Shown here one piece after another: positions 1,533 through 28,564 of a DNA stretch of 51,850 nt (its first letter is position 1; the number at the start of each line of letters is the position of its first letter). Source of the stretch: Spirochaetota bacterium (GTDB lineage: Bacteria; Spirochaetota; JAGLSM01; JAKPMW01); contig JAITCI010000085.1 of the NCBI GenBank assembly GCA_031283155.1, positions 1-51,850 on the forward strand, in the 5' to 3' direction. The notes below the pieces were generated by a model. That model saw only the letters and a list, made by a program, of their open reading frames with translations, was not told where the DNA came from and made no database searches. The position numbers and the translations under genes are program-made.

Positions 1533-2198
1533 ATGGACGCATTGCTCTCGATCTATACAGACCTTTTCGCGCTCTATGGACCGCAGGGCTGGTGGCCTCT
1601 CGGGAAGGGGTATCACCCGGGTGATTATTCCCCGCCTCGGGCAAAGGCAGGTATATTTGAGGTGTACTTGGGTGCCGTACTCACGCAAAACAGTTCCTGG
1701 AATGGCGCAAGCATGGCGATTGGGGAACTGAAACGGCGATCCTGCATAAGCGCCTCCGCGTTGCTTGCGCTTCCCGCAGAGGAACTGGAACAGGCGATAC
1801 GCCCCGCGCGGTACTGGAAGCAAAAGGCGCGGTATCTTCGCGGGCTTGCGGAATTTTTTATGGCGCTTCGCGGACGGATCCCGAGTCGGGAAGAGCTTCT
1901 GGCGCAAAAGGGGATTGGGCAGGAGACGGCGGACTCCATTTTATTGTACGCCTATCATCAGCCTGTCTTTGTGGTGGATACCTATACGCGCCGGTTTTTT
2001 GCCGCGCTTGGAATACTGACGGGCAGGGAAAGCTATGCGGAGATCCAAAATATGTTTATGAACGCGCTTCCGCGCGATGCGGCGCTCTTTAATGAATATC
2101 ACGCGCTCATCGTTCGCCACGCGCGCGCGTATTACAGCAGAAAACCCCATGGGGTCGGCGATCCGCTGGGATCAAAACACAGCGAAAGCGAGGCATAG
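1533..2198 (+). CDS. Endonuclease III-like HhH-GPD DNA glycosylase, apparently without an Fe-S cluster
   Basis: A base-excision repair glycosylase of the HhH-GPD superfamily. The start at 1533 gives MDALLSIYTDLFALYGPQGW, the usual beginning of this subfamily; an upstream ATG at 1506 is also open. The core holds VYLGAVLTQNSSWN, the hairpin-helix-hairpin QKGIGQETADSIL and the catalytic-aspartate segment VVDTYTRRFFAALG. The Lys found in bifunctional EndoIII hairpins is not present at the equivalent place, which suggests glycosylase-only chemistry. The C-terminus ends HARAYYSRKPHGVGDPLG without the four cysteines that normally follow, so the cluster loop seems lost. Its stop is one base before the mvaS start, so it is probably translationally coupled to the mevalonate operon. 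Confidence 0.8.
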   Translation: MDALLSIYTDLFALYGPQGWWPLGKGYHPGDYSPPRAKAGIFEVYLGAVLTQNSSWNGASMAIGELKRRSCISASALLALPAEELEQAIRPARYWKQKARYLRGLAEFFMALRGRIPSREELLAQKGIGQETADSILLYAYHQPVFVVDTYTRRFFAALGILTGRESYAEIQNMFMNALPRDAALFNEYHALIVRHARAYYSRKPHGVGDPLGSKHSESEA

Positions 2199-2199
2199 A

Positions 2200-3486
2200 G
2201 TGAGCGAAGCCGCCCTGCCGGGAATCAGCGATATCGCGGTTTATCTTCCGCGATTTTCAATAGACATTGCTTCCATTGTCGCGGCTCGGGTAGCCGAGGA
2301 CGCGGCCGGCGGAGAGAAGTATCTGCGCGCGCAGGAGTCGACCGGACAAAAGAGTATGCGTTTTCCCGAATCCTGGGAAGACAGCGCGACCATGGCCGCC
2401 GAGGCGGCGCGCGCGCTCTTTGACGCGAACCCGGGGATGGCGCAAAGCCTGCGCTATCTCATGGTCGGGACGGAAACCGGACTCGATCACTCCAAGCCGC
2501 TCTCGGCCTGGGTGCAGGGGATGCTTGATCGGATCGGACACGAACTCGCCGGGAATCTTTTGTCGGCGCAAACCCAGCACGCCTGCGCCGGCGGAAGCGT
2601 CGCGCTCTTTTCCGTCGCCGCCCAGCTGGCTCTTGCGGGGCGCGCGCATGAAAACGGCCTCGTGATCTGCTCGGACGTTGCGCGCTATCCGCGCGGTTCC
2701 ACCGCCGAATTAACGCAAGGAGCGGGTGCTGTCGCGCTTTTAGTGCAGCCGGAGGCGCGGCTTGTCGGGCTTGATCTGACAACCTGCGGATTTGCGTCGC
2801 GCGACGTCGATGATTTCTTCAGGCCGCTCGGGAGTGAAGCGGCATACGTGAAGGGGGCGTACTCCATACGCTGCTACCGCGAGGCGTTCGAAGAGGCTTT
2901 TCTTGATCATGCGGCGCGCCGGAGCGCAAGCCCAAAGGAAGTTCTGGAGGGAACGGATATTTTCGTTTTGCACGCGCCCTATTACAGGCTCCCTGTTGAT
3001 TCCCTGCGATGGCTTGTTTCGCGGCAGCTTGCCTGCGACAGCGCAAAGAGCGTCGCCTTTATTCAGGAAAAAGGGTACGAGGATTCCGTGAGCGCCGCCG
3101 CTGTGGCCGGGAATCTCTATACCGGATCGCTCTATCTCGCGCTGTTCCGCGCGCTTAAGGGCGCGCATACGCGTTTTGGCAAGGATATCGGCGGCAAGCG
3201 AATTCTCCTTGCCTCCTATGGTTCGGGAAATACAATGGCCGTTTTTTCGGGCGTCGTGGCCGAAGGCGCATACAACGTCATTTCCAGATGGAAAACCCGC
3301 AACCACGAATCCAGTTTCGCGAACGCGAGTCTGGAAATGTATGAGGAGTGGATGCGGCGGGAGAGTCCGGGCATTCCCCTCGATAAAAACGCGCATCCAT
3401 CTGACGAAAGGCTTCCGCGCGAGGGTGCCTTCTATCTCAGGAATATTCGTGAGGACGGGTATCGCGAGTATGGGATCAAGAGCTAG
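2200..3486 (+). CDS. mvaS: Hydroxymethylglutaryl-CoA synthase
   Basis: Condenses acetyl-CoA with acetoacetyl-CoA to HMG-CoA, the first committed step of the mevalonate route to isoprenoids. Residues fitting the catalytic triad are Glu92 (GTETGLDHSK), Cys129 (HACAGGS) and His258 (LHAPYY). GNLYTGSLYLAL and ASYGSGNTM near the C-terminus are also family motifs. I chose the GTG at 2200 because GAGG lies 7 bases upstream and the N-terminus (ISDIAVYLPRF) then matches the family; an in-frame ATG at 2077 would lie deep in the preceding gene. 428 residues is a little long. It overlaps the next gene, fni, by 17 bases. Confidence 0.93.
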   Translation: MSEAALPGISDIAVYLPRFSIDIASIVAARVAEDAAGGEKYLRAQESTGQKSMRFPESWEDSATMAAEAARALFDANPGMAQSLRYLMVGTETGLDHSKPLSAWVQGMLDRIGHELAGNLLSAQTQHACAGGSVALFSVAAQLALAGRAHENGLVICSDVARYPRGSTAELTQGAGAVALLVQPEARLVGLDLTTCGFASRDVDDFFRPLGSEAAYVKGAYSIRCYREAFEEAFLDHAARRSASPKEVLEGTDIFVLHAPYYRLPVDSLRWLVSRQLACDSAKSVAFIQEKGYEDSVSAAAVAGNLYTGSLYLALFRALKGAHTRFGKDIGGKRILLASYGSGNTMAVFSGVVAEGAYNVISRWKTRNHESSFANASLEMYEEWMRRESPGIPLDKNAHPSDERLPREGAFYLRNIREDGYREYGIKS

Positions 3487-4597
3487 TAAGCGGAATACGA
3501 TCACCGTTCGCAAAAAAAGGCACCTTGAGGTCTGCCTGCGCGAAAAAAATTTCCGGATCGAGGATGTACGCGGCGCGGGGTTCGGCGCTATCCACTTTGT
3601 GCATGAGTGCCTTCCGGAGATCAATGCCGACGGGATCGACACCGGCGTTGAATTTCTCGGCAAGAAGCTCTCGTTCCCATTTCTCATTTCCTGTATAACC
3701 GGCGGCACTCTGGACGGTTCCCCGTTAAATATCTCGCTTGCCGGGGCGGCGCAGCGCGCGCGTGTCGCTTTTGGTCTGGGATCCATGCGCATCCTCTTTC
3801 ATGAACCGAAGGCATATAAGGATTTTGCTGTGCGCTCCCTTGCGCCGGACGTTCCTCTGCTCGCGAATATCGGCGCGGCGCAGCTTGCGGAATTCGCGCC
3901 CCTGCGCATTCTGGAGGCTGCGCAGAGTCTGGACGCGGACGCGCTCGTGGTACATCTCAATCCCGGGCAGGAGATCGCGCAGACCGGTGGGGACGTTGAT
4001 TTTCGCGGCGTCATGGACGCGATCTCGGCGCTGATAGAACTGAACAGGCTGCCCATAATTATAAAGGAAACCGGTCATGGTATTCGTCCGCGCCGCGCGC
4101 GGGATCTCCTGGCGCGCGGGGCAGCCTGGGTTGACCTTGCCGGCGCAGGCGGCACGGATTTTTTGCAGGTGGAACTCGCTTGTCGCGAAGAAGGCTCTCC
4201 GGATCAGATCGCCAATCCCTTTGCGTCCTGGGGTCTGCCCACGGCGCTCATTCTGGCCGCGCTCCGCGTCCAGCGTTCTCCGGGAGATCGGCGGGAAGCC
4301 ATGCCGGTTATCGCCTCGGGCGGACTCAGGAATGGGCTGGATCTCGCGAAGTCCCTTGCCCTCGGCGCGGGGCTTGGCGGGATGGCGCTTCCGCTCGCGC
4401 GCGCCTGCGCAGAGCGCGGGGAAGAGGGGATTACCGGAGTATTGGATCGCATCCACCATGAACTCATCATGGCCATGTTTCTGACGGGTTCGCGTACCAT
4501 TCCGTCTCTTCGCCGCGCCGATTTATATTACGACGCCGATTTTACCGCCCTGCTTCAGGGCTTGCTTGCCGCCGAGGAAGGGTATGCGCATGGGTGA
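3470..4597 (+). CDS. fni: Type 2 isopentenyl-diphosphate delta-isomerase (FMN-dependent)
   Basis: Interconverts isopentenyl diphosphate and dimethylallyl diphosphate using reduced FMN. Family signatures are in order: RKKRHLEVCL, FLISCITGGT, LLANIGAAQL, VVHLNPGQE, IIKETGHGI, VDLAGAGGTDF, SWGLPTALIL and ASGGLRNGLDLAKSLALGA. The start at 3470 gives 375 residues, close to the family norm, and overlaps the mvaS stop by 17 bases, implying translational coupling. It sits between mvaS and mvaA. Borrelia also uses a type 2 isomerase with a mevalonate pathway, which fits a spirochaete. Confidence 0.95.
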   Translation: MGSRASKRNTITVRKKRHLEVCLREKNFRIEDVRGAGFGAIHFVHECLPEINADGIDTGVEFLGKKLSFPFLISCITGGTLDGSPLNISLAGAAQRARVAFGLGSMRILFHEPKAYKDFAVRSLAPDVPLLANIGAAQLAEFAPLRILEAAQSLDADALVVHLNPGQEIAQTGGDVDFRGVMDAISALIELNRLPIIIKETGHGIRPRRARDLLARGAAWVDLAGAGGTDFLQVELACREEGSPDQIANPFASWGLPTALILAALRVQRSPGDRREAMPVIASGGLRNGLDLAKSLALGAGLGGMALPLARACAERGEEGITGVLDRIHHELIMAMFLTGSRTIPSLRRADLYYDADFTALLQGLLAAEEGYAHG

Positions 4598-5762
4598 AGA
4601 CGGCAGGAAAGAGCGGCTGGCGCATCTTGGGCGCGAAGAGCGCCGCCGTCTCCTCTGTTCGGAACATCCGGATCTGGCGGACTCGCTTGCGCGCGCCGAG
4701 GATCCCGCGCTGCTCTCCGATCTCAGCGAAAAGATGATTGAAAATTCAATATCCTTTTTTGCCCTGCCCTTTGGTGTCGCTGAAAATTTTCTGATCGACG
4801 CCGCCGCGCTCTCTGTCCCCATGGTAACCGAAGAACCCTCGGTGGTGGCGGCGGCCTCGTTTGCGGCGGGGCTGATCCGCCTGGGCGGCGGGTTTACGAC
4901 CGAGGCGAAGGAGGCGGAACTCGCGGCGCAGGTTTTTTTGGAGCAGGTTCCCGAAACATTCTGTCAAAACGGGCTTGATCAAGCGGAGCGCGAGGCTCTG
5001 GACGCGCAGCTTGGCGCTCTTGCCGGACAGGTATTGCCTTCGCTTATCGCGCGCGGCGGCGGGTTTGCGGGCAGCAGCATAAGCGCGCTTTCCGGAATTC
5101 CCGGAGTGGTGCGCGCAGATCTGCGTCTTCGGGTCTGCGACGCCATGGGCGCAAATATGGCCAACACCTTCGCCGAGGCCGCGCGCAAGCTGCTCGAGGA
5201 TCGCACGGGGGGGCGGGCGCTCGCCGCCATCCTCACGAACGAGTGCGCCCTGCGGCTTGCCGAGGCGCGTTTCTCCCTGCCGGTGAAGCTCCTGCGCCGC
5301 GCGGGACAGAAGGGCGAAGAGATCGCGCGCAGGCTTATGCTCCTGTCCGAGGTTGCGCATCATGATCGCGCGCGCGCGATCACCGCGAATAAAGGGGTGA
5401 TGAACGGTATCACCGCGCTCGCGCTTGCGACCGGCAATGACACCCGCGCCGTTGAAGCGGCGGCTCATGCCTGGGCCTCGCGAAGCGGGCGCTATCTTCC
5501 GCTCACGCGCTACGGATTGGATCGGGGGCGTCTTACCGGGGAGATCATTCTGCCCCTGCCTCTGGCATCGGCAAGCAGCATGGCCGGGCTGCATCCGGGC
5601 GCTCTGTTTTCTCTTTCGCTCCTGGGGAGTCCATCCGCGCCCCGCCTGGCCGCGATAGCCGCCGCTCTGGGACTCGCGCAAAACCTCGCGGCGCTGCTGG
5701 CATTGGTGGGGGAGGGTATCCAGGCCGGGCATATGCGGCTGCATACGCGGCGAACGCCGTAA
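4590..5762 (+). CDS. mvaA: Hydroxymethylglutaryl-CoA reductase, class II
   Basis: Reduces HMG-CoA to mevalonate. Class II signatures: ISFFALPFGVAENFLIDA, TEEPSVVAAASFAA, the dinucleotide-binding motif DAMGANMANT, AILTNECALRLAEA, NKGVMNGITALALATGNDTR (the Asp after ATGN is catalytic) and the C-terminal GIQAGHMRLH with the catalytic His. The ATG at 4590 lies 8 bases after GAGGAAGG and gives 390 residues; an ATG at 4584 is too close to that site. It overlaps the fni stop by 8 bases. It is followed by an unusual hairpin-rich gap before mvaD. Confidence 0.95.
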   Translation: MGEDGRKERLAHLGREERRRLLCSEHPDLADSLARAEDPALLSDLSEKMIENSISFFALPFGVAENFLIDAAALSVPMVTEEPSVVAAASFAAGLIRLGGGFTTEAKEAELAAQVFLEQVPETFCQNGLDQAEREALDAQLGALAGQVLPSLIARGGGFAGSSISALSGIPGVVRADLRLRVCDAMGANMANTFAEAARKLLEDRTGGRALAAILTNECALRLAEARFSLPVKLLRRAGQKGEEIARRLMLLSEVAHHDRARAITANKGVMNGITALALATGNDTRAVEAAAHAWASRSGRYLPLTRYGLDRGRLTGEIILPLPLASASSMAGLHPGALFSLSLLGSPSAPRLAAIAAALGLAQNLAALLALVGEGIQAGHMRLHTRRTP

Positions 5763-6142
5763 ACCCGGGAAAGCTCGCGCTCCCGTTGGATACAGCAGCG
5801 CAGATCTACGCAAACTCCGGACGCCGTTCCCTGAATCAACAGCAGGCATACGCATACAAAACAGCCGCGTGTGGCCGTACAACACAAGCAGCAGCGGTAC
5901 GTACAGGATCGCGTATAACAGTTCCAGTACGCCGCCCACATAAGGCGCATTTCAAAGAGTCACGCGAACGCCTCGGCTCGCGAGAGCCGGGGCGTTTACA
6001 CGACGTAAACACTCCGCGCTCGACAGGATGTCGGAAAAGTGTTTATGCCCTGTGGGGTACGGGACGTCTTTCGTTTCTGCGCGCCGCTATTATGATCCAT
6101 GCGTAGCTTTATGGATGACCGCCGCAAAAATGGATATGCCGA
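5763..6142. other. 380-base intergenic region with stacked hairpins
   Basis: No convincing gene. A 13-bp stem with a GCGA tetraloop lies at 5967-5996 (AACGCCTCGGCTC against GAGCCGGGGCGTT) and may act as a terminator after mvaA. It is followed by GTTTAC-acgac-GTAAAC (5994-6010) and CGACA-GGA-TGTCG (6021-6033). The last shares GACAGGATGTC with the repeat in the D-aminoacylase gene at 27437-27447, and GCCCTGTGGG (6048-6057) also recurs there as 27539-27548. On the minus strand 5850-5939 reads as a short hydrophobic stretch (MGGVLELLYAILYVPLLLVL), perhaps a decayed membrane gene; it has no independent stop or family match. Confidence 0.5.
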
Positions 6143-7135
6143 ATGAATTCCTCCTCTGTCACAGTCCGCGCAGCCCCAAGCCTCGCCCTCATTAAATACT
6201 GGGGAAAAGCGAATGGGAGCGAGCCGCCTAATCGTCCGGCGACGAGCAGCATCGCCGTCAGTCTGGAGGGGTTGTACAGCGAGGCGCGCGTAACGTCGGC
6301 GGAGAATCGCGACTGCGTAATCCTCGATGGGCGCGAGATGGACGGCAGGCGCTACGCCGCTTTTTTTGAGAATATCCGCGCCTGCCTGGACGTAAAACAC
6401 TTTTACGAATGTATATGCAGGAATAATTTCCCGAGCGCCGCCGGACTCGCGAGTTCATCGTCAGGTTTCGCGGCATTGGCTGCGGGCTGCGCGCGGCTCT
6501 CCAGTCTGCTTCTTGAAAAACCAACGCCGGATTTGCGGACGCTTTCCGCGTTGGCGCGCGTGGGTTCGGCTTCGGCTGCGCGCGCGGTCTATCCGGGCTT
6601 TGTGATCCTGAAGGCGAACGCCGAGGCGGCTCTGCCTCTGTACGCTCCCGATTTCTGGCCGGAGCTGCGCGTGATTGTGGCGCGGATCAGCGATGAGGCA
6701 AAGCCGCGCTCGTCGCGCGACGCAATGGAACATACGCGCGCGACGAGCCCATATTACCCGGCATGGCTGCGGGACAGCCGCGCGCTTTTCACCCGCGCGC
6801 TCGCAGCGCTGGAGAGGCGCGATCTCGCGCAGCTTGGCCCCCTCATTCGCGCGAGTACCTATCGTATGTTTGGAAGTATTCTGGCCGCTGATCCCGTTAT
6901 CATATATTGGAAGCCCTTAACGCTCGCGCTTCTGGAGCAGCTTGAAGAGCTTCGCGGTCAGGGACTCCTGCTTTTTGAAACCATGGACGCCGGACCGCAG
7001 GTCAAGATATTTTGCCTTGAGCGGGAAGCCCGGCAGGCGGTTGCCTCAATTCAAAAGGCGATCCCGGAACTGGCGGATCGGCTTTCCGTGCTTGCGCCCG
7101 GCGGCGGTCTCACCTGGCCGGAACAAGAAACCTGA
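6143..7135 (+). CDS. mvaD: Diphosphomevalonate decarboxylase
   Basis: Converts mevalonate 5-diphosphate to isopentenyl diphosphate with ATP. GHMP-kinase-superfamily features: SLALIKYWGKANG near residue 13, the ATP-binding loop AAGLASSSSGFAALAAG (~residues 98-114), and the C-terminal ETMDAGPQVKIFC containing the catalytic Asp region. 330 residues is the normal length. No strong ribosome binding site is visible before the ATG at 6143. It is separated from mvaA by a 380-base gap, so it may have its own promoter. Mevalonate kinase and phosphomevalonate kinase, needed to make its substrate, are not in the window. Confidence 0.94.
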   Translation: MNSSSVTVRAAPSLALIKYWGKANGSEPPNRPATSSIAVSLEGLYSEARVTSAENRDCVILDGREMDGRRYAAFFENIRACLDVKHFYECICRNNFPSAAGLASSSSGFAALAAGCARLSSLLLEKPTPDLRTLSALARVGSASAARAVYPGFVILKANAEAALPLYAPDFWPELRVIVARISDEAKPRSSRDAMEHTRATSPYYPAWLRDSRALFTRALAALERRDLAQLGPLIRASTYRMFGSILAADPVIIYWKPLTLALLEQLEELRGQGLLLFETMDAGPQVKIFCLEREARQAVASIQKAIPELADRLSVLAPGGGLTWPEQET

Positions 7136-7860: not shown

Positions 7861-8008
7861 GTTTGCCTCTCTGATGGCATCGTGATTGCCGGATAGAAAA
7901 ACAATAACGCCATTTTACCGCTCCGACAATGTATTCACAAAACGCTTCCATTTATTGCAATTTTGTCTCATACTGCTATTCAGAATCCGGAATCATTTGG
8001 AGGCGATT

Positions 8009-9517
8009 ATGTCGATTATGCGAGTCCGTCTGCTTGCGCCTGTTTTCGGGATATGGATGCTCATTCTTTGTTCCTGCGGTTCCGAAAGCGTGATCACCAT
8101 TCTGCACTTTGCGGATTTCCATGATTTTCTCCAGCCTGCCGTAAGTGTTGTGGATAACCATACCAATGAGGTAGGCGGTATTGCGCGCCTTATAGGGACG
8201 GTGCTCAGGGAAAAAAGCGCAGCTCCGGATTCCACTTTTGTATTGTCTGCGGGAGACGCTGTTCAGGGAACAACCTTCTCCACGTTTTTCAAGGGCGAGA
8301 TCATCTATTCGCTCTTTGACAAATTTGTGGACTACACCGTGCTGGGCGTACACGATCTGGATTACAGCCTGGAAAATCTGATAGAGCTGACCAAAGACAG
8401 GAAATATCAGTTTTTGGCCGCCAATGTCCTCGATAAGGAAGCGAAACCATTTTCTGGCCGCGATTATGCCATACGGGAGGTTAATGGTGTAAAGATTGGT
8501 TTTTTCGGTTTGACCAAACTCATCACGGCAATCTTACAATCGGAAAAAAATATAGGCTATCTTAATTTCGCACCCGTGGAGGATGTCGCCAAAACCATGG
8601 TGCAAACTCTGCGCTCCCAGGGTGCCGATATAATCATCGCGCTTACCCATCAGGGTTTCGAGGAGGATAAAAAACTGGCGCGTACGGTCGAGGGCATTGA
8701 TCTGATTGTGGGTGGACTCTCACATACCAATCTGATTAAGGGGTTCCAGACATTTGATACCATTATTGTGCAGGCCGGGTTCCGGGGTGAAAATGTCGGA
8801 AAGGTGGTCATCCGGTACGATAAAAAAAAGAAAACCGTTATCTCCATCACTCCAACGATCATTCCGGTGATTGGCTCGTCGCCTGCGGATGCTGAAAGCG
8901 CGCGGGTGGTTGAGGAATACGCCGAAGACATGGCCACTAAAATGGGCGTTGTTATCGCAAAGACCGACGTACACCTTGAGGGTACGCGCGAAGTGGTCCG
9001 CAGAACGGAAACCAATCTTGCCAATATGATAACCGATTTCATGTGTCTCTCCAGCGGCGCGGAACTTTGTCTCATCAACTCCGGCGTCATCCGCGCCAGC
9101 ATAAGTGAGGGCGATATCCGCGTCGCCGACGTAATCAATACCCTGCCCTATCCGAATAGTGTTTCTGTTGTGCGCATTCCCGGCCGGGCAATCTACCGTA
9201 TTCTTGAGAAAAGCGCGGCGTGTCTCCCCGGGGAAGGGAGATTTTTGCAGGTTTCCAAAGGCGTGAGTTATAAAATCAGGGGAAGGGTTCTTGAAGAGTT
9301 TCTTTTTAATGGCCGTGAGATCGACTTCAACCGCTATTATGCCGTAGCGACCAGCGATTTTCTCGCCGACGGCGGAGATAATTATCCCGAATTCAAACAG
9401 GATCTGAATCCAAAAAACACAGGGCAAACCATGGCTGAGTGCATTATCGCTGTGCTCCGGCAGGTGGGCAGCGTCAGTCCGAAGATTGAGGGGCGCATTG
9501 TGCGTCTTGAGGAATAG
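8009..9517 (+). CDS. 5'-nucleotidase/UshA-family metallophosphatase-like lipoprotein, second metal site lost
   Basis: Signal peptide with spirochaetal lipobox (LILCSCGSES) marks a lipoprotein. The ATG at 8009 follows GGAGG by 5 bases. The N-terminal metallophosphatase domain keeps Asp36-x-His38 (FADFHDF), Asp83 (SAGDAVQGT) and His214 (THQG). The usual GNH(E/D) is GVHD (Val114), and the usual GGHSH is GGLSH (Leu237). In E. coli UshA the equivalents, Asn116 and His252, both belong to metal site 2. The C-terminal nucleotide-binding domain looks normal (NSGVIRASISEG, TSDFLADGGDNYPEF). Nucleotide hydrolysis is therefore doubtful; a binding role or altered phosphatase is possible. A strong terminator follows. 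Confidence 0.85.
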   Translation: MSIMRVRLLAPVFGIWMLILCSCGSESVITILHFADFHDFLQPAVSVVDNHTNEVGGIARLIGTVLREKSAAPDSTFVLSAGDAVQGTTFSTFFKGEIIYSLFDKFVDYTVLGVHDLDYSLENLIELTKDRKYQFLAANVLDKEAKPFSGRDYAIREVNGVKIGFFGLTKLITAILQSEKNIGYLNFAPVEDVAKTMVQTLRSQGADIIIALTHQGFEEDKKLARTVEGIDLIVGGLSHTNLIKGFQTFDTIIVQAGFRGENVGKVVIRYDKKKKTVISITPTIIPVIGSSPADAESARVVEEYAEDMATKMGVVIAKTDVHLEGTREVVRRTETNLANMITDFMCLSSGAELCLINSGVIRASISEGDIRVADVINTLPYPNSVSVVRIPGRAIYRILEKSAACLPGEGRFLQVSKGVSYKIRGRVLEEFLFNGREIDFNRYYAVATSDFLADGGDNYPEFKQDLNPKNTGQTMAECIIAVLRQVGSVSPKIEGRIVRLEE

Positions 9518-9622: not shown

Positions 9623-11401
9623 ATGGCAAAGAAGATTACGTGGATATATTCACTCATTTTGTTTGCAGTCAGCGTGGTATGCGCTCCTGCGTATCTTCCG
9701 GCCATGCCGCCGCATCCGAGCATCATCAATACTCTCCGCGAGCGGGGCGATAATGCGGGTCTTGCGCGGCTCGGCGCGCGCGCGCAAGCGGAAGCCAGGC
9801 GCAGGATACAGCATCGCAGAGCTTCCCCAATCCAGGGGGAGTACAGGGTACTCGTGATTCTGGTGGAATACAGTGATCGCGTCTTCAGACCCGTTTCAAC
9901 GCCGACTTTTTATTCCCGTCTTTTGAACGGCGCTGCGCCCGGCGCTCTTTCCATGAAAAAATATTACGCCGATATGTCCGGCGGAATCTTTAACATTTCG
10001 ATTGACGTTGTTGGACCGTACAAGGCGTCGGGGACTGCGGTACATTATGGCGCGAATGACAGTGAAGGCAATGATCTCCGACCCGCGACTCTGGTTCGCG
10101 AAGCCGTACTCAAAGCGCAGGCTGCCGGGGTGGATTTTGACCCCTACGACAACGACGATGATGGGTATGTGGATACCGTCATGGTTATACATGACGGTAT
10201 CGGGGAAGAAGTTTCAGACAGGCCAAATGATATTTGGTCGCACGCCTGGGAACTCTCTTCTGGGCAGGGCCACGACGATGGCGACGGACCTGTGGCTATA
10301 GGCTCAAAGACCGTGGACGTCTACTGTATTCAACCGGAGTATACCTTCAGCGCCGGAGACAGCGCGATTGGCGTTTTTTGCCATGAATACGCACATATCC
10401 TGGGCTTGCCGGATATGTATGATACAACGGACGCCACGGCCGGCGCGGGCGATTTCACGATCATGGCCTCGGGCGCGTGGTGCGGACCGGATGACGATGG
10501 TTCGCATCCCACCCCGTTTCTCGCATGGGAAAAGAATATGCTGGGCTGGCTTGCGTACACAACTCCAACCGCCGCGCTTGCCGCTCTCCCCGCTTTCAAA
10601 ACCTCGGTAGTGGCGCTTTCTGCTATTCCTGTGGACAGGCAAGCCTCGCCGGTTGCGCTCTTTGCGGGGCTTCTCGCCGCAGGCGGGCTGGCCTGGTTCG
10701 CGCCGCGAACGCGGCATACCGCCGTTCTCATACTTGTGTTTGCGTTCCTGCTTGGAGCGATGGTTTGGGGTGCGAACTGCGGCGGTTCGGCACCGCATAA
10801 CCCGGGCGGCACTTTATCCTCTGACTCCGGCATTTCCTCTGACTCCGGCGTTTCTGTTTCTTCCGCATCCTCTGATTCTGGCGTTTCTGTTTTTTCCGCA
10901 TCCTCTGTTTCCGGCAGTCCCGTCGTCCCCGGATTTGTCACGCTTGGGGATATTGAAACAACGCGCGAGGCGGTGAAGATTCCTTTGGGGGATCCGGCCG
11001 GGCGGCAATACTACCTTCTTGAAAATAAGGCGGTGAAGAGCGGAACCTGGACGCAGTATTTTCCGGGGAATGGGCTTTTGATTACGCATATCCATGACGG
11101 AGTTATTAACGCCAAAATAGATTTCAATACAGTCAATGACGGCAGGAACAGGATTCACGGTGTTAATGTTGTTGAGGCGGATAATAACAGACGCCTTTGG
11201 ACAAATGCCGACTATGGTACGGCGTCAGATCTCTTCAGAAGCAGGAGTTTTACTCCAGGCACAACGCCCGCGACTTTTTACTATAATGGAACTTCTTCCA
11301 ATAATTGGTCAACCAACGGCACCACTTTGTCCAAAGTGTATATATCCAACATCAGCGCCGCCGGGGCGGTTATGACTTTTGAGTATAAGGTGCAGCAATA
11401 A
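9623..11401 (+). CDS. M6-family metalloprotease with membrane-hairpin insertion, paralogue 1
   Basis: A secreted or membrane-anchored zinc protease of the immune-inhibitor-A-like M6 family. N-terminal signal/anchor (ITWIYSLILFAVSVV), then a conserved AMPPHPSIINTLRERGD segment. Zinc motif HEYAHILGLPDMYD begins at His254, with Met-turn IMASGAW after it, so the site looks intact. After ENMLGWLAY-like sequence the domain is interrupted: hydrophobic segments at ~344-360 and ~366-385 flank PRTRH and end in NCGGS (Cys386), then a Ser-rich linker (387-~436). The domain resumes at ~439 with LGDIETTREAVKIPLGDP and YYLLENK, then GLLITHIHDG. The ATG at 9623 is preceded by GGGAGAGGG. First of three tandem paralogues. 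Confidence 0.88.
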   Translation: MAKKITWIYSLILFAVSVVCAPAYLPAMPPHPSIINTLRERGDNAGLARLGARAQAEARRRIQHRRASPIQGEYRVLVILVEYSDRVFRPVSTPTFYSRLLNGAAPGALSMKKYYADMSGGIFNISIDVVGPYKASGTAVHYGANDSEGNDLRPATLVREAVLKAQAAGVDFDPYDNDDDGYVDTVMVIHDGIGEEVSDRPNDIWSHAWELSSGQGHDDGDGPVAIGSKTVDVYCIQPEYTFSAGDSAIGVFCHEYAHILGLPDMYDTTDATAGAGDFTIMASGAWCGPDDDGSHPTPFLAWEKNMLGWLAYTTPTAALAALPAFKTSVVALSAIPVDRQASPVALFAGLLAAGGLAWFAPRTRHTAVLILVFAFLLGAMVWGANCGGSAPHNPGGTLSSDSGISSDSGVSVSSASSDSGVSVFSASSVSGSPVVPGFVTLGDIETTREAVKIPLGDPAGRQYYLLENKAVKSGTWTQYFPGNGLLITHIHDGVINAKIDFNTVNDGRNRIHGVNVVEADNNRRLWTNADYGTASDLFRSRSFTPGTTPATFYYNGTSSNNWSTNGTTLSKVYISNISAAGAVMTFEYKVQQ

Positions 11402-11456
11402 CCGGCAGGGTGTGCGAGGGCTGGATTTAACCTGAATACGTATCGGGAGGCGGGAT

Positions 11457-13583
11457 ATGGCAGCGAAAAGAGTATGGATATATTTGCTCATCTCTCTCGC
11501 AATCAGTGCGGTATGTATCCCTGTTGCTCTGGCGGCCATGCCGCCGCACCCCGATGTTATAAACTCTCTCCGCGAGCGGGGCGATACAGCCGGGCTTACG
11601 AGGCTCAGCGCCCGCATGGAAGCGGAAGCCAGACGAAGTATGCAGCGCATCACGACTCCAACGAAACCTGTTCAGGGCAATTATAAGGTTTTGTTTATTC
11701 TGATAGATTTTTATGATTACAAGTTTAATGATGTTTCCACTCCGGAATTTTATGCAAACCTCTTAAACGGCACCTCGTCTGACGCCTTCTCCATGAAAAG
11801 ATATTACAGCGATATGTCCGGCGGGGTTCTGCAGCTTACGATGGATGTTTGCGGGCCGTACCGCGCGGCGAATAACAGGGCGTATTACGGCGCAAATAAA
11901 ACCAGTACGCAAGGCAGCGACAGTTTCCCCGCAACGCTGGTTCGCGAGGCCGTCATCGCCGCAGACGCCGACGGGATTGATTTTTCCCCCTATGATATGG
12001 ACGGCGACAATGACGTGGATACCGTTATGATCATCCATGCCGGTCCCGGGGAAGAATCCATAACCACTGACACGGACGCTATATGGTCGAAGGCGTGGGA
12101 TCTCTATTCCGGAAGCTACTACGGCGACGGCGCCGGAAGGTATACGACCGCAAGCGGCAAACGGGTCAATATATTCTGCCTTCAGCCGGAGTTTACCAAA
12201 ACTCCCGGAGACAGCGGGATAGGGGTTTTTTGCCACGAATACGGGCATATCCTCGGCTTACCGGATCTATACGATACAACCTATGCTACGCTCGGCGCGG
12301 GTAATTTTACGCTTATGGCAAATGGCGCATGGGCAGGGAATAAGCCGGGCACAAACCCGCCGGCATGGGATGGCACTTGTCCCGTTCCGCTTCTTGCTTG
12401 GGAAAAGAACAGGCTTGGCTGGCTTGCCTACTCATCACCAGCCGAGCTTGCATTTCTGGATGCTTTCAAAACCACGGTAGTGGCTCAGGGAGCGCTTTCC
12501 GATATTTCCGCCGAACCCATCGCGCGCATTGCGCTCTTTGCGGGTCTCCTGCTTTCGGGCGGATGTATGTGGTTCGCGCCGCGAATGCGCGGCACTGTTT
12601 TGACGCTTGCTCTTGTGTTTCTGCTGGGAATGATGATCGGGGGCGCGAGTTGCAGCGGTACGCCCTTCAGCCCGGGTAGCGCAGCCTCTTCGGCTTCCGG
12701 CGGTACGCTAAGTTCCGCCGACGCGGCGTCCGGCGGCTCTGTTTCTTCGCCGGACTCGAGCGCTGCCGCATCCTCTGTATCCAGCGCTGCCGCATCCTCT
12801 GTATCCAGCGGTGCCGCATCCTCTGTATCCAGCGGTGCCGCATCCTCTGTATCCAGCGGTGCCGCATCCTCTGTATCCAGCGGTGCCGCATCCTCTGCTT
12901 CCGGCGCTGCCGCATCCTCTGCTTCCGGCGCTGCCGCATCCTCTGCATCCGGCACCGCCGCATCCTCTGTATCCAGCGCCGCCGCATCCTCTGTATCCGG
13001 CACCGCCGCATCCTCTGCATCCGGCACCGCCGCATCCTCTGTATCCAGCAGAGCGTCCAGCGCTGCTTCTTCCAGCAGAGCGAGCAGCTCCTCTCTCCCC
13101 GGCATCCTGGTTTCCCTTGGCAATGTTGAGACGACGCGCAAGGCGGTCAAGATACCCCTTGGTGATCCTGCCGACCGGCAGTACTACATTGTTGAAAACA
13201 AGGTGCGCGTAAACGGAACCTGGACCGAGTTTCTCCCCGGTTATTATAATTCTGCGGGACTCCTGATAACGCATATCCATGATGGGGTTATCAGCGCCGG
13301 AATAACAGGCAATACAGTCAATGACGGCGCAAACAGGATTCATGGGGTCAATATTGTGGAGGCAGATGACGGTCGGCATCTTTGGTTAAGCACCAGCGCC
13401 GGAGGTTCCGCTGATTACTTCAAAAACAGAAGTTTTGAGCCCGGCACAACGCCCGCGACTTTTTACTATAATGGAACTTCTTCCAATAGCTGGTCAACCA
13501 ACAGCACCACCTTGTCCAAAGTGTATATATCCAACATCAGCGCAGCCGGATCAACCATGACCTTCCGGTATTCGGTGCAATAG
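11457..13583 (+). CDS. M6-family metalloprotease with membrane-hairpin insertion, paralogue 2
   Basis: Same architecture as its neighbour. Signal/anchor VWIYLLISLAISAVC; zinc motif HEYGHILGLPDLYD from His260; Met-turn LMANGAW. The interrupting hairpin contains PIARIALFAGLL and WFAPRMR, and a second hydrophobic segment ending GASCSGT (Cys399). The linker (~400-550) holds twelve 8-residue repeats of the type GAASSVSS. The catalytic domain resumes at ~552 (SLGNVETTRKAVKIPLGDP). 708 residues. The ATG at 11457 follows GGGAGGCGGGAT. It starts 55 bases after the previous stop, so it is likely co-transcribed. The last ~35 codons are almost identical at DNA level to those of paralogue 1, indicating recent duplication or gene conversion. 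Confidence 0.88.
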   Translation: MAAKRVWIYLLISLAISAVCIPVALAAMPPHPDVINSLRERGDTAGLTRLSARMEAEARRSMQRITTPTKPVQGNYKVLFILIDFYDYKFNDVSTPEFYANLLNGTSSDAFSMKRYYSDMSGGVLQLTMDVCGPYRAANNRAYYGANKTSTQGSDSFPATLVREAVIAADADGIDFSPYDMDGDNDVDTVMIIHAGPGEESITTDTDAIWSKAWDLYSGSYYGDGAGRYTTASGKRVNIFCLQPEFTKTPGDSGIGVFCHEYGHILGLPDLYDTTYATLGAGNFTLMANGAWAGNKPGTNPPAWDGTCPVPLLAWEKNRLGWLAYSSPAELAFLDAFKTTVVAQGALSDISAEPIARIALFAGLLLSGGCMWFAPRMRGTVLTLALVFLLGMMIGGASCSGTPFSPGSAASSASGGTLSSADAASGGSVSSPDSSAAASSVSSAAASSVSSGAASSVSSGAASSVSSGAASSVSSGAASSASGAAASSASGAAASSASGTAASSVSSAAASSVSGTAASSASGTAASSVSSRASSAASSSRASSSSLPGILVSLGNVETTRKAVKIPLGDPADRQYYIVENKVRVNGTWTEFLPGYYNSAGLLITHIHDGVISAGITGNTVNDGANRIHGVNIVEADDGRHLWLSTSAGGSADYFKNRSFEPGTTPATFYYNGTSSNSWSTNSTTLSKVYISNISAAGSTMTFRYSVQ
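12762..13049. repeat. 24-base tandem repeat, 12 units, in the second M6 gene
   Basis: Twelve head-to-tail units of 24 bases (core GCCGCATCCTCTGTATCC) encode AASSVSSG/AASSASGT-type octapeptides. Since the unit is a multiple of three, copy-number change keeps the frame. It is a coding minisatellite, not a CRISPR array: there are no unique spacers. Confidence 0.95.
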
Positions 13584-13670
13584 GAATATTTCTCTTGTAA
13601 TTTTTATTCATGCGCGCCGCAGATCTATGCTAAACTTATCCTAAAGCGAATGCTTACTTGGGGGCGGGAT

Positions 13671-16600
13671 ATGGCGGCAAAAATGAAAAACGTATGGATA
13701 TATCTGCTCATTTTGACCGTAATCGGCGCGGTATGCGCGTCTCGTGATCTTGCGGCCATGCCGCCGCATCCGAGTATTATAGATTCTCTCCGGCAGCGGG
13801 GCGATACCGCAGGGCTGGAGCGAATCAGCGCGCGTATGAAAGCGCAGGCCAGCCGCAGTATACAGCGCGTCACGCCGCCAAAGGGTCCTGTTACGGGTAA
13901 TTACAAGGTTCTTGTGCTTCTGATAGATTATGTGGACAGCCCATTTGCCAACGTATCCACCACAACCTATTATTCCAGCCTCTTAAACGGCACTTCGTCC
14001 GGTGCCTTTTCCATGAAAAGATATTATAACGATATGTCCCATGGTCTTTTGGAGCTTGATATTCGCGTCCATGGACCGTACCATGCGGCGAATGCCAAAG
14101 CGTATTACGGGCAAAACTACCCTTCAGATAGCGATCGCCGTCCCGCGCAGTTGGTCCGCGAAGCTGTACTCGCCGCTCAGACCGGCGGGGTGAATTTCGC
14201 TGACTACGATAATAACAACGACGGAGAAGTGGACGTCGTTATGGTTATACATTCGGGGGCAGGGGAAGAGGTTTCAGGCGATGATGATGATATATGGTCG
14301 CACGCATGGAATCTCACCAGCGGCGGCGCCGGCGCAGTAAGCGTCAATGGCAAAACTGTGAATGTGTACTGCATTCAGCCAGAGTTCACCTTCGGACCCG
14401 GAGACAGCGGGATAGGCGTTTTTTGCCACGAATACGCCCATATTCTTGGTTTACCGGATCTGTACGATACATCGGATGCAACATACGGGGCGGGAATGTT
14501 TACCGTTATGGCCTCCGGTTCGTGGGCAGGTCCAAACGGCGATGGTACGCGTCCTCTCCCGTTCCTCGCATGGGAAAAGAACTTGCTTGGCTGGCTGACT
14601 GTCCAGCTTCCGGACGGAACCCTTGCCATGATGGATACCTTAAGGTCATCGATGCTGGCGCTTTCCGATCATTCCGATCAGCCTACGCCGATTGCGCGTA
14701 TTGCGTTCTTCGCGGGCATTCTGGCTTCGGGCGGACTCTTCTGGTTCTCGCGCCGCAGCCGCACCGCTGCTCTTATGTTTGCCTTCGTGTTTCTGTTCGG
14801 GGTGATGGCCGGAGGGATCAATTGCAGCGGCAGCCCGCCGGATCCGGACGGTACAATATCTGCCGCCGCAGGCAGTTCTCAGTCTGTAGCCGGAAGCGGT
14901 GCAGCGATGAGTTCTCTGTCCGCAACCGGGAGCGGTGAGGCGGCGAGTTCTCCGCCTGCGGCCGGGAGCAGCGAAGCGATGAGTTCTCTGTCCGCAACAG
15001 GGAGCGATGCAGCGATGAGTTCTCAATCCGCAGCTGGGAGCAGCGAAGCGGCGGGTTCTTCATCCGTAGCCGGGAGCAGCGAGGCGGTGAGTTCTCTGCC
15101 CGCAATCGGGAGCAGCGAAGCGGCGGGTTCTTCATCCGTAGCCGGGAGCAGCGAAGCGGCGGGTTCTTCATCCGTAGCCGGGAGCAGCGAAGCGATGAGT
15201 TCTCCGCCCGCAGCCGGGAGCAGCGAGGCGATGAGTTCTCCGCCCGCAGTCAGCAGCGCCGCAGTCAGCAGCGTGGTATCTTCAGCTCCCGGCGGTCTGA
15301 CCGGCGACGCCTACCCCTATTTGTTTACCGGAGCGAGTTTTACCGGAGCGGCGGGCGGCGTCGTTCCCGGTTCGGGAAATATGCTAGGAACACATACTTT
15401 CGACGAAGATGGATACGCAGGTACCTGTATGCGTCTGGTTTATAATGCGAGCGGAAATGGCCTGGTGTATCAATCCCCATCCGGCTCCTTTATAAGTCCG
15501 CGCACCGGTGATAATGCCGTGACCTTCTGGATTGCCGGAACTCTGTCTGCCGGGAATATACGCATCTTTTTAACCGAGAACGGCACTCCAGGAAGCGTAA
15601 ACAAAACATTCAATATAACGAGCGCCGTTCCAACCACTCTGAGCGCTATTACAAATTCAAATTACACAAGCGGTTCCGCTGATTTTACATCCTGGACAAA
15701 AGTTACGCTCTCCTACGAGGCGACGAATCACGCCGGTACAGGAGCATTGCAGATCCGTGTTGGCGCTGTTGGTTCCGGGGTGGCGGGCAGCCGAAAAATT
15801 GATTTGTATATGGATGAGTTTAAGTGGGAAAACCTCTCAGGAGGGGGTACCTCGGCGGCCAGCGCCGCTGCAAGCAGTTCCGCCGTTTCCAGCAGAGCGA
15901 GCAGTGCAGCCGCAAGCAGCGCGGTATCTTCTTCCAGCAAAGCGAGCAGTGCAGCCGCGAGCAACGCGGTATCTTCAGCCTCCGGCACGAGCAGCGTTGT
16001 ATCTTCGGCTCCCGGCAGCTCAGCGGCGAGCGACGCTTATCCTTATTTGTTTACCGGGGCGAGTTTTACCGGAGCGGCGGGCGGTGCCGTTCCCGGATCG
16101 GGAGCCATGTCAGGAACACATACTTTCGACGGAGATGGCTATGCGGGTACGAGTATGCGTCTGGTTTATAATGCGAACGGGAATGGTTTGGTATATCAAT
16201 CCCCATCCGGTTCCTTTATAAGTCCGAGCGTCGGCGATAATGCCGTAACCTTCTGGATTAAGGGCAACCTGACTGCGGGTTCTTTGCGCTTCTTCTTAAC
16301 CACCGACGGGAGCGCATCGGGTACGAATAAAGCGTTCAATATAACGAGCCTTTCTGATACCAATATAACCGCGAGTTCGGATCAGGCTTTCGCAAGCGGC
16401 TCCGCCAATTTCGCATCCTGGACAAAAATTACGCTCTCCTACACGGCGACGAATCACGTCGGTACAGGAGCGCTCCAGATCCGTGTTGGCGGCACCGGCT
16501 CCGCAGCAGGCAGCCGCAACATTAACCTGTGCGTGGATGAGTTTAAGTGGGAAAACCTTTCAGGAGGAGCGAGCAGCGCCGCCGCTTCCAGCAGAGCGAG

Positions 16601-17099
16601 CAGTGCAGCCGCGAGCAGCGCTTCCTCCGTCCAGGCAGTTTCCCTTGGCAATATCGAAACGTCGCACTTGGCGATTAAGATTCCGCTGGGGGATCCGGCC
16701 GGACAGCAATATTACCTTGTTGAAAACAAGGTGAAAGCAAACGGAACATGGACACAGTATTTACCGGGCAGCGGACTCCTGATTACGCATATCCACACCG
16801 GAGTTATCAATGCCATGATGGCAAGTAATAAAGTCAATGACGGCGCAAACAGGATACACGGAGTCAATATTGTGGAGGCGGATAACAAGAGAGATCTCTG
16901 GACGGGTGGCACCGTGGGAGTCGATGCGGATTTCTTCAAAGGCAGGAATTTTAATCCGAGTACAGCCCCCTCAACTTTTTATTATACCGGAACCTCTTCC
17001 GGCGGCTGGCCTGCCGCAGGCACTGCCCCTTCCCGCGTGTACATAGATAACATCAGCGCCGCCGGACCAACCATGACCTTCCAGTATTCGGTGCGGTAA
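13671..17099 (+). CDS. M6-family metalloprotease with membrane-hairpin insertion and two beta-rich modules, paralogue 3
   Basis: Largest of the three at 1142 residues. The ATG at 13671 was chosen over 13650 because it follows GGGGGCGGGAT and aligns with the paralogues (MAAKMKNVWIYLLIL). Zinc motif HEYAHILGLPDLYD begins at His253; Met-turn VMASGSW. The hairpin (PIARIAFFAGILASGG, WFSRRSR) ends in GINCSGS (Cys385). Next: a Ser/Ala/Gly linker of 11-13-residue repeats (~386-540), module 1 (~546-722), a Ser linker, module 2 (~788-964), a Ser linker, and the second half of the protease domain from ~990 (SLGNIETSHLAIKIPLGDP). The modules (DAYPYLFTGASFTGAAGG to DEFKWENLSGG) look like jelly-roll binding domains; no family can be named. 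The downstream DUF362 gene starts 16 bases later. Confidence 0.88.
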   Translation: MAAKMKNVWIYLLILTVIGAVCASRDLAAMPPHPSIIDSLRQRGDTAGLERISARMKAQASRSIQRVTPPKGPVTGNYKVLVLLIDYVDSPFANVSTTTYYSSLLNGTSSGAFSMKRYYNDMSHGLLELDIRVHGPYHAANAKAYYGQNYPSDSDRRPAQLVREAVLAAQTGGVNFADYDNNNDGEVDVVMVIHSGAGEEVSGDDDDIWSHAWNLTSGGAGAVSVNGKTVNVYCIQPEFTFGPGDSGIGVFCHEYAHILGLPDLYDTSDATYGAGMFTVMASGSWAGPNGDGTRPLPFLAWEKNLLGWLTVQLPDGTLAMMDTLRSSMLALSDHSDQPTPIARIAFFAGILASGGLFWFSRRSRTAALMFAFVFLFGVMAGGINCSGSPPDPDGTISAAAGSSQSVAGSGAAMSSLSATGSGEAASSPPAAGSSEAMSSLSATGSDAAMSSQSAAGSSEAAGSSSVAGSSEAVSSLPAIGSSEAAGSSSVAGSSEAAGSSSVAGSSEAMSSPPAAGSSEAMSSPPAVSSAAVSSVVSSAPGGLTGDAYPYLFTGASFTGAAGGVVPGSGNMLGTHTFDEDGYAGTCMRLVYNASGNGLVYQSPSGSFISPRTGDNAVTFWIAGTLSAGNIRIFLTENGTPGSVNKTFNITSAVPTTLSAITNSNYTSGSADFTSWTKVTLSYEATNHAGTGALQIRVGAVGSGVAGSRKIDLYMDEFKWENLSGGGTSAASAAASSSAVSSRASSAAASSAVSSSSKASSAAASNAVSSASGTSSVVSSAPGSSAASDAYPYLFTGASFTGAAGGAVPGSGAMSGTHTFDGDGYAGTSMRLVYNANGNGLVYQSPSGSFISPSVGDNAVTFWIKGNLTAGSLRFFLTTDGSASGTNKAFNITSLSDTNITASSDQAFASGSANFASWTKITLSYTATNHVGTGALQIRVGGTGSAAGSRNINLCVDEFKWENLSGGASSAAASSRASSAAASSASSVQAVSLGNIETSHLAIKIPLGDPAGQQYYLVENKVKANGTWTQYLPGSGLLITHIHTGVINAMMASNKVNDGANRIHGVNIVEADNKRDLWTGGTVGVDADFFKGRNFNPSTAPSTFYYTGTSSGGWPAAGTAPSRVYIDNISAAGPTMTFQYSVR
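14866..15270. repeat. Degenerate 33-39-base coding repeat in the third M6 gene
   Basis: About ten imperfect units encode SSLSATGSGEAA- and SSSVAGSSEAAG-type peptides, with a recurrent GGGAGCAGCGAAGCG core. Neighbouring units differ slightly in length but keep the reading frame. The repeat unit differs from that in the second M6 gene, so the linkers evolved separately. Confidence 0.9.
15303..16560. repeat. Duplicated ~530-base module in the third M6 gene
   Basis: Copy 1 (about 15303-15840) and copy 2 (about 16029-16560) encode ~177-residue modules that share long identical runs (SFTGAAGG, GDNAVTFWI, the segment NGLVYQSPSGSFISP, DEFKWENLSGG). DNA identity is high in the first 220 bases and lower in the middle. 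The copies are separated by a Ser-rich linker, so the module appears to have duplicated together with linker sequence. Confidence 0.92.
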
Positions 17100-27942: not shown

Positions 27943-28497
27943 CTATTCCCGGTTATACCGCGCGATTGTATGCAGTTCCTTTCGCTTGTGCGTACCCGGG
28001 AGAGTATACCCCTCCGGCGGGTACCCGAGCGCGAGCAAGCACACAAGATGCTCGTTTTTCGGCACGGTGAGCAGCCTGCGCACCGCATCCACGTCAAACC
28101 ATCCAATATAGCACGATCCGAGCCCCAATTCCTCGGCGCGCAGCACAAGCTGCTGGCACGCGACGCCCAGGTCAAAAAGATAAAACTGAACCCCCTGCAG
28201 AAACGTGCCAATCCTGTTGATCCTAATATCGGTTTTTGCGAGCGCCGCTATAATAACCGGCGCTTCGCGGATGAATTTGCTCGGGAGGTACACGCCTCCG
28301 GTCGCGGCCAGCGCGATTTCATCCCGCAGGGCAGGGTCGTCAATGACATGAAAGCGCCAGAGCTGCGAATTTTGCGCCGACGGCGCGATGCGCGCCGCCT
28401 CGAGACACGCATCGATCACCCCGCGTTCCGGCTGCCGCTTCGCGTAGCGCCGGAGCGAATGTCGCTTGTGAAGAATCTCTTCGACAGGATTTTGCAT
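27943..28497 (-). CDS. Nitroreductase-family flavoprotein
   Basis: 184 residues of the FMN-dependent nitroreductase fold. N-terminal RHSLRRYAKRQ is the FMN-phosphate-binding motif (usual RRSxRxF); ARIAPSAQNSQLWRF and the C-terminal ELGLGSCYIGWFD and LLALGYPPEG also match. Substrate unknown. The start at 28497 gives MQNPVEEILHKRHSLRRY; an ATG at 28524 would add nine residues. Neither has a strong ribosome binding site. Divergent from comEC, with 67 bases between the starts. Confidence 0.9.
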   Translation of the reverse strand: MQNPVEEILHKRHSLRRYAKRQPERGVIDACLEAARIAPSAQNSQLWRFHVIDDPALRDEIALAATGGVYLPSKFIREAPVIIAALAKTDIRINRIGTFLQGVQFYLFDLGVACQQLVLRAEELGLGSCYIGWFDVDAVRRLLTVPKNEHLVCLLALGYPPEGYTLPGTHKRKELHTIARYNRE

Positions 28498-28564
28498 GGC
28501 AATCCATAGTACACCATTTTGCAAAAAAAGCGAACCCGAAACGTGCGCTCGGCTTTTCTATTTT

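What the first reader, a model, noticed from the sequence alone, without database searches (positions are those of the whole stretch)
9623..17099. M6 protease domain split by a membrane hairpin, a conserved Cys and a variable repeat linker
In all three paralogues the catalytic domain is cut between the Met-turn half and the IPLGDP..YYLLENK half by two hydrophobic segments with WF(A/S)PRxR-like residues between them, a Cys followed by Gly/Ser, then a Ser/Ala/Gly-rich linker of very different length (about 50, 150 and 600 residues including modules). Both halves must lie outside the membrane for the fold to form, so the hairpin would tether the enzyme in the middle of its domain, an odd topology. 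The Cys might be lipidated or crosslinked after cleavage at the hairpin.
Basis: partly seen in the sequence, partly recalled or inferred. Interest (0 to 1): 0.72.

Follow-up and report, generated by a model that had tools for sequence, protein, structure and literature searches.

The report
Roaming lipoprotein anchor inside a protease
In an uncultured spirochaete, three secreted proteases carry, in the middle of their catalytic domain, a two-helix membrane hairpin ending in a lipoprotein-type cysteine, and relatives across the phylum carry the same kind of module in one of three different loops of that domain, which suggests that the enzyme is lipid-anchored and probably cut in two from inside rather than at an end.

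Summary
All three tandem M6 genes have TM1 – Arg loop – TM2 – Cys – Ser/Ala/Gly linker (52, 152 and 604 aa) between the zinc-site half and the C-terminal beta half.

It is not an assembly error or part of the M6 fold. In a Spirochaetota clade of M6 proteases, 21 of 21 proteins examined carry exactly one such module. It sits at one of three loops: early (4), middle (12) or late (5). AU tests reject a single origin for the early and the middle placements. Bacteroidota and Zixibacteria relatives lack it.

The residue before the Cys obeys the spirochaetal lipobox rule in 20/21 (7.2 expected), and the full rule is met in 15/21 (4.5 expected). The window's own copies meet only part of the rule. Ordinary lipoproteins of the same genome show the same TM–CSG/CGG–Ser-linker layout.

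Best explanation: TM2 is an internal lipoprotein signal peptide. Lgt lipidates the Cys, and LspA probably cuts, leaving a two-chain, lipid-tethered protease. A published M6 enzyme (PrtV) is fully active as two chains.

The nearest described relative is NCBIfam NF058595 "lipo-invert" tail, whose cut-off the tested M6 proteins do not reach. Similar modules lie near the C-termini of two Granulicella proteins. Lipidation and cutting are inferred, not shown.

The parts
9623..11401 (+). M6 protease copy 1 (592 aa from ATG 9623; the frame is open from TTG 9569): type I signal peptide, propeptide (MPPHP...), catalytic N half with HEYAH at 10382, insert, catalytic C half
10643..10777 (+). copy 1 membrane hairpin: TM1, loop WFAPRTR, TM2
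   Evidence: AlphaFold helices at residues 343-358 and 361-384
10778..10780 (+). copy 1 internal lipobox-like Cys (GAN|CGG)
10781..10936 (+). copy 1 linker, 52 aa, predicted disordered
   Evidence: (pLDDT below 50 at residues 384-433)
10937..11398 (+). copy 1 catalytic C half (VTLGDIE..IPLGDP..YYLLENK...)
11457..13583 (+). M6 protease copy 2 (708 aa)
12510..12650 (+). copy 2 membrane hairpin (loop WFAPRMR)
12651..12653 (+). copy 2 internal Cys (GAS|CSG)
12654..13109 (+). copy 2 linker, 152 aa, 82% Ser/Ala/Gly
13110..13580 (+). copy 2 catalytic C half
13671..17099 (+). M6 protease copy 3 (1142 aa from ATG 13671; the frame is open from ATG 13650)
14682..14822 (+). copy 3 membrane hairpin (loop WFSRRSR)
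14823..14825 (+). copy 3 internal Cys (GIN|CSG)
14826..16637 (+). copy 3 linker, 604 aa, Ser/Ala/Gly-rich with two modules
15306..15845 (+). copy 3 linker module 1 (180 aa)
   Evidence: 73% identical to module 2; related (29%, E = 7e-14) to modules of an ordinary lipoprotein on contig C47
16032..16571 (+). copy 3 linker module 2 (180 aa)
16638..17096 (+). copy 3 catalytic C half

Best explanation
The insert is an internal lipoprotein anchor. The protease is exported by Sec behind a type I signal peptide. TM1 acts as a stop-transfer segment and the Arg/Lys loop stays in the cytoplasm. TM2 then re-starts export in the N-in/C-out orientation of a signal peptide, with the Arg loop as its n-region and the stretch before the Cys as its lipobox. 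Lgt attaches diacylglycerol to the Cys. LspA probably cuts before it, so that the C-terminal part becomes a lipoprotein chain on a flexible Ser/Ala/Gly tether, while the N-terminal part (with the zinc site) keeps TM1 and the TM2 remnant. The two parts fold together as one M6 domain. Shown: anatomy, positive loop, lipobox statistics, conservation, placement in three different loops, predicted intact fold, LspA in the genome. Inferred: topology, lipidation, cutting, two-chain activity. The reason for an internal anchor, also inferred: M6 enzymes lose their N-terminal propeptide on maturation, so an N-terminal lipid would be lost, whereas an anchor in a loop of the mature domain stays with the enzyme.
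For: The segment before the Cys is lipobox-like: -1 in A/G/S/N/C in 20 of 21 sequences (7.2 expected from shuffles) and the full SpLip rule (rule as quoted in PMC6529012) met in 15 of 21 (4.5 expected; 8 of 9 lineage representatives against 1.7 expected). Sister-species copies read VFLAS|C, VTLAG|C and GLGG|C after RRRDLR, RRREIR and RRLRR. Ordinary lipoproteins of the same genome have the same TM-CSG/CGG-Ser linker start, and one (contig C47) has modules related to those in copy 3's linker. LspA is present. The module sits in three different loops, one per protein, with the Cys at the end of TM2 every time, which fits an anchor and not a part of the fold. AU tests reject one origin for early (p = 0.0007) and middle (p = 0.017) placements. 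AlphaFold models of a middle-site and a late-site protein (both pTM 0.74) keep one fold, with the hairpin between confident core segments. M6 protease PrtV is fully active as two non-covalent chains of 37 and 18 kDa, and a similar conversion is cited there for InhA (PMC2613228).
Against: The window's own three copies meet the -1 rule but have Gly or Trp at -3/-4 and so fail the full SpLip rule; lipidation could be weak or lost in this species. L047 has Arg at -1. No protein-level data exist. I found no published case of an internal lipobox being processed in the library searched. AlphaFold was run without membrane context.
Confidence: 0.68

Rival explanations
1. The hairpin is a plain two-helix membrane tether: the chain stays in one piece, the Cys is not lipidated, and only the helices hold the protease at the inner membrane.
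For: Two clear hydrophobic segments with a positive loop; the window copies have imperfect lipoboxes.
Against: A simple tether needs no invariant Cys with small residues before it at all three sites (20 of 21), nor a lipoprotein-like Ser linker after it.
Confidence: 0.17
2. TM1 plus Arg is an internal C-terminal-type sorting signal (exosortase, rhombosortase or Myxo-type) that releases the N half; the rest is a fused lipoprotein.
For: Weak sub-threshold matches to MYXO-CTERM and VPDSG-CTERM in L032 (E = 0.35 and 0.8); the GG..W.RRR look of TM1.
Against: Matches are far below cut-offs. The two halves are one M6 domain and could not serve as independent proteins. TM1 is not conserved between families.
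Confidence: 0.06
3. Assembly or gene-fusion artefact, or hydrophobic segments that belong to the soluble M6 fold.
For: None found.
Against: Three paralogues here, three in the sister species, 15 more in other families, at three sites, frames open. Outgroup M6 proteins lack it.
Confidence: 0.01
4. The Cys is lipidated by Lgt but LspA does not cut, giving a single chain with an internal S-diacylglyceryl cysteine and a membrane hairpin.
For: An internal site with a helix on its N side is not the natural end of a signal peptide; nothing here shows cutting.
Against: TM2 presents the same orientation as a signal peptide, and lipobox residues (-1) are those LspA needs.
Confidence: 0.08

Closest known systems
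NCBIfam NF058595.1 'lipo-invert putative C-terminal anchoring domain' (invert_tail)
   Same: Matches the hairpin up to about the Cys in copy 1 (E = 6e-4), L047 (6e-5) and several others; the name implies a lipoprotein-like anchor at the far end of the chain.
   Different: No M6 protein tested and none of 393 Spirochaetota genomes reaches its cut-off of 37 bits. It is described as a C-terminal tail; here the module lies inside a catalytic domain, at three alternative loops. No paper on it was found.
Hairpin-Cys modules near the C-termini of Ig-like/DUF11 proteins of Granulicella tundricola (WP_013572702.1, WP_041597980.1)
   Same: TM1 - RRR loop - TM2 - small residue - Cys-Gly/Ala, then the last stretch of an exported beta domain, 47 residues before the end.
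   Different: Acidobacteriota, Ig-like hosts, always near the C-terminus in the two seen; no NF058595 match in the one scanned.
Classical N-terminal bacterial lipoprotein (Lgt/LspA pathway)
   Same: Positive n-region, hydrophobic segment, lipobox Cys, Ser-rich tether; same layout as ordinary lipoproteins of this genome.
   Different: Preceded by about 340-400 residues of exported protein and a first TM helix in the middle-site proteins.
M6 peptidases InhA2 (PDB 4yu5/4yu6) and PrtV
   Same: Same catalytic domain by sequence (E = 1e-47) and fold (Foldseek E = 3e-17); PrtV is active as two chains.
   Different: No hairpin or lipobox reported in them; PrtV is cut by itself in solution.

Membership tests
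M6 peptidase (PF05547 / TIGR03296) | profile match above the curated cut-off | tested here: met
   PF05547 107-119 bits against 22; TIGR03296 189-204 bits against 110.8
M6 peptidase (PF05547 / TIGR03296) | HExxHxxGxxD zinc motif | tested here: met
   HEYAHILGLPD / HEYGHILGLPD in all copies
M6 peptidase (PF05547 / TIGR03296) | proteolytic activity | not testable with these tools
   needs expressed protein
NF058595 lipo-invert tail | score above the curated cut-off of 37 bits | tested here: not met
   20 bits for copy 1, no listed match for copies 2 and 3; best 31.8 bits in the phylum, G215 M6
NF058595 lipo-invert tail | position at the C-terminus | tested here: not met
   Cys at residues 386/592, 399/708 and 385/1142
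Bacterial lipoprotein (Lgt/LspA substrate) | Cys after a hydrophobic segment with a positive n-region | tested here: met
   all 21 sequences
Bacterial lipoprotein (Lgt/LspA substrate) | spirochaetal lipobox: A/G/S/N/C at -1; L/I/V/F at -3 or -4; no charge | tested here: inconclusive
   15 of 21 in the family meet all of it, including the three sister-species copies; the window's three meet only the -1 and no-charge parts
Bacterial lipoprotein (Lgt/LspA substrate) | lipid-modified Cys, globomycin-sensitive cut | not testable with these tools
   bench work needed

The most novel reading that the evidence does not exclude
A movable internal lipoprotein signal: a hairpin that is both stop-transfer and second, internal type II signal peptide has been kept in a protease clade while changing loops at least three times. 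Lgt/LspA process it inside a single catalytic domain, so that each mature enzyme is a two-chain protease tethered by one membrane-bound and one lipidated chain.
Probability: 0.45. Interest if true: 0.78.

Novelty: new variant of a known kind. Interest (0 to 1): 0.64.

Why it matters
Lipoprotein signals are searched for only at the N-terminus, so proteins of this kind are missed by signal predictors and misread as membrane proteins or secreted enzymes. If TM2 is processed, LspA can act inside a protein and produce two-chain enzymes, which widens the known substrate range of a drug target. The movement of the module between loops of one fold gives a natural series of insertions with which to ask where a catalytic domain tolerates a membrane anchor and a cut. 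It also gives the NCBIfam lipo-invert idea an enzyme with a testable activity.

Tried and rejected
Assembly or fusion artefact: rejected, since the module occurs in paralogues, a sister species and other families.

Part of the M6 fold: rejected, since it is absent from Bacteroidota and Zixibacteria relatives and from other Spirochaetota M6 proteins.

Membership in NF058595: not met.

A made-up Acidobacteria-like peptide against plasmids gave no match. Reading stretches of a Granulicella plasmid directly did find the module.

Module as a common feature of other proteins in this genome: a hairpin profile found only the three M6 genes. This is weak evidence, because hairpin sequences diverge fast.

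Geometry of the three sites in space could not be computed, since the tool gives no coordinates.

Disulfide role of the Cys: not pursued; no partner is conserved at all three sites.

Full report
Observation. The window (contig C81 of a 2.5 Mb draft genome) holds three tandem M6 metalloprotease genes on the + strand at 9623-11401, 11457-13583 and 13671-17099. Pfam PF05547 and NCBIfam TIGR03296 match all three far above cut-off, but TIGR03296 ends at position 229-242 of 286 in each. There each protein has a first hydrophobic segment, a loop WFAPRTR / WFAPRMR / WFSRRSR, a second hydrophobic segment, a Cys followed by GG or SG, and a Ser/Ala/Gly-rich linker of 52, 152 or 604 residues. The rest of the catalytic domain then resumes at VTLGDIE / VSLGNVE / VSLGNIE.

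The organism. L019, a Spirochaetia MAG contig of a public collection, and L050, from a genome listed as 'same phylum' as the window, encode the same M6 protein, so the phylum is Spirochaetota. The window's class holds only three genomes here.

Relatives. A sister species of the same genus has three M6 proteases with the same insert and textbook lipoboxes: WRRRDLRG...VFLAS|CSD, WRRREIRS...VTLAG|CSD and RRLRRSAG...LGG|CSD. In 393 genomes of the phylum, 27 have an M6 hit. Middle (12 proteins): as in the window. Early (4): in the loop between the first strand and the first helix of the mature domain, at copy-1 residue 91. Late (5): before the last two strands, at copy-1 residue 548. Each protein has one module only, always TM1 - positive loop - TM2 - Cys. 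M6 proteins of Bacteroidota and Zixibacteria, and other M6 subfamilies of the phylum (L040-L042, L053-L056), have none.

Tree. With the inserts cut out, the 21 module-bearing proteins fall on one side of a weakly supported branch (87/66). Late is one clade (100/99). The early placement needs two changes and the middle one three, four changes of state in all under parsimony. AU tests reject a single early clade (p = 0.0007) and a single middle clade (p = 0.017; p = 0.008 without the long branch L051). One genus (g85) has early in one species and middle in two others. So the module has changed loops, or been lost and regained, while its presence was kept.

What the module is. The spirochaetal lipobox rule quoted in PMC6529012 asks for A/G/S/N/C at -1, L/I/V/F at -3 or -4, and no charge. 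Of 21 internal Cys, 20 obey the -1 rule (7.2 expected after shuffling the 18 residues before the Cys) and 15 obey all of it (4.5 expected); of nine lineage representatives, eight obey it (1.7 expected). The relatedness of sequences is only partly dealt with by the representatives. The window's three copies are the weak ones: GAN, GAS and GIN fit -1 but have Gly or Trp at -3/-4. Ordinary lipoproteins of the same genome begin with a TM, then ACSG or ACGG, then a Ser/Ala linker. The one on contig C47 carries modules 29-33% identical (E near 1e-13) to the two 180-residue modules in copy 3's linker. So from TM2 onward copy 3 reads like an ordinary lipoprotein of this organism placed inside a protease. 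LspA is encoded in the genome.

Structure. AlphaFold with 21 relatives gives copy 1 a pTM of 0.74. The catalytic halves are the confident core, the hairpin forms helices at 343-358 and 361-384, and the linker 384-433 is below 50 pLDDT. A late-site protein (L052) has pTM 0.74, hairpin helices at 471-489 and 493-514, and then the last two strands, in a stretch that reaches pLDDT 94. The best Foldseek match is the InhA2 zymogen. These models were made without a membrane and do not show topology.

Mechanism. The most likely course is export, stop-transfer at TM1, cytoplasmic Arg loop, restart at TM2, lipidation of the Cys, and probably an LspA cut. Would a cut kill the enzyme? A paper on PrtV, another M6 protease, reports that its 37 kDa part (with the zinc site) and 18 kDa part stay together and are as active as the uncut forms, with about 150 residues between them lost, and it cites a similar conversion for InhA (PMC2613228). 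The C part of the window copies (about 155 residues) is close in size to the 18 kDa part (163 residues). I did not map the sites residue by residue. The same paper reports N-terminal processing (residues 1-105 removed). My inference is that M6 enzymes cannot keep an N-terminal lipid, which would explain an anchor inside the mature domain.

Known or new. NCBIfam NF058595, 'lipo-invert putative C-terminal anchoring domain', matches some of these hairpins below its cut-off (copy 1 E = 6e-4; L047 E = 6e-5; best in the phylum 31.8 of 37 bits needed). No paper in the library uses that name, and none turned up that describes an internal lipobox. From memory I suspected Acidobacteriota Ig-like proteins. 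In 250 kb of a Granulicella tundricola plasmid two exported beta-repeat proteins carry such a module 47 residues before their ends...MRRRYPKR...AGLSG|CGSGG and ...MARRRKALG...AING|CAGTS. A module of this kind is therefore known to curators as a C-terminal tail. A module placed inside a catalytic domain, at changing loops, is a new variant.

Limits. Nothing at the protein level is shown. Lipidation in the window's own species is the least certain step. The scan for the module in other proteins of this genome was by sequence profile only.

Noticed in passing
window 15306-15845 and 16032-16571; L096 (contig C47): 180-residue module family without a Pfam match in the M6 copy, shared between the M6 linker of copy 3 and an ordinary Ser-linker lipoprotein; perhaps a surface-binding module.
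   Followed up: partly
window 2077-7135: HMG-CoA synthase, HMG-CoA reductase and a mevalonate diphosphate decarboxylase-like gene in a row: mevalonate-pathway cluster.
   Followed up: no
window 7886-9517: 5'-nucleotidase/UshA-like protein just upstream, with an N-terminal lipoprotein-like start (LCSCGS), in contrast to the internal Cys of the M6 genes.
   Followed up: no
L095 81-7769 (-) and L097 33842-37261 (-), Granulicella tundricola pACIX901: TM-RRR-TM-lipobox-Cys module 47 residues before the C-terminus of two Ig-like/DUF11 proteins; the one scanned gives no NF058595 match.
   Followed up: partly
window 28472-30505 (+): Polytopic membrane protein (about 11 TM) that also met my hairpin-Cys filter; the one clear false positive of that scan in the window.
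   Followed up: no
window 12485-13150 and 12708-13379 (-): Long antisense open frames over the Ser/Ala-codon repeats of copy 2's linker; probably by-products of the repeat, not genes.
   Followed up: no
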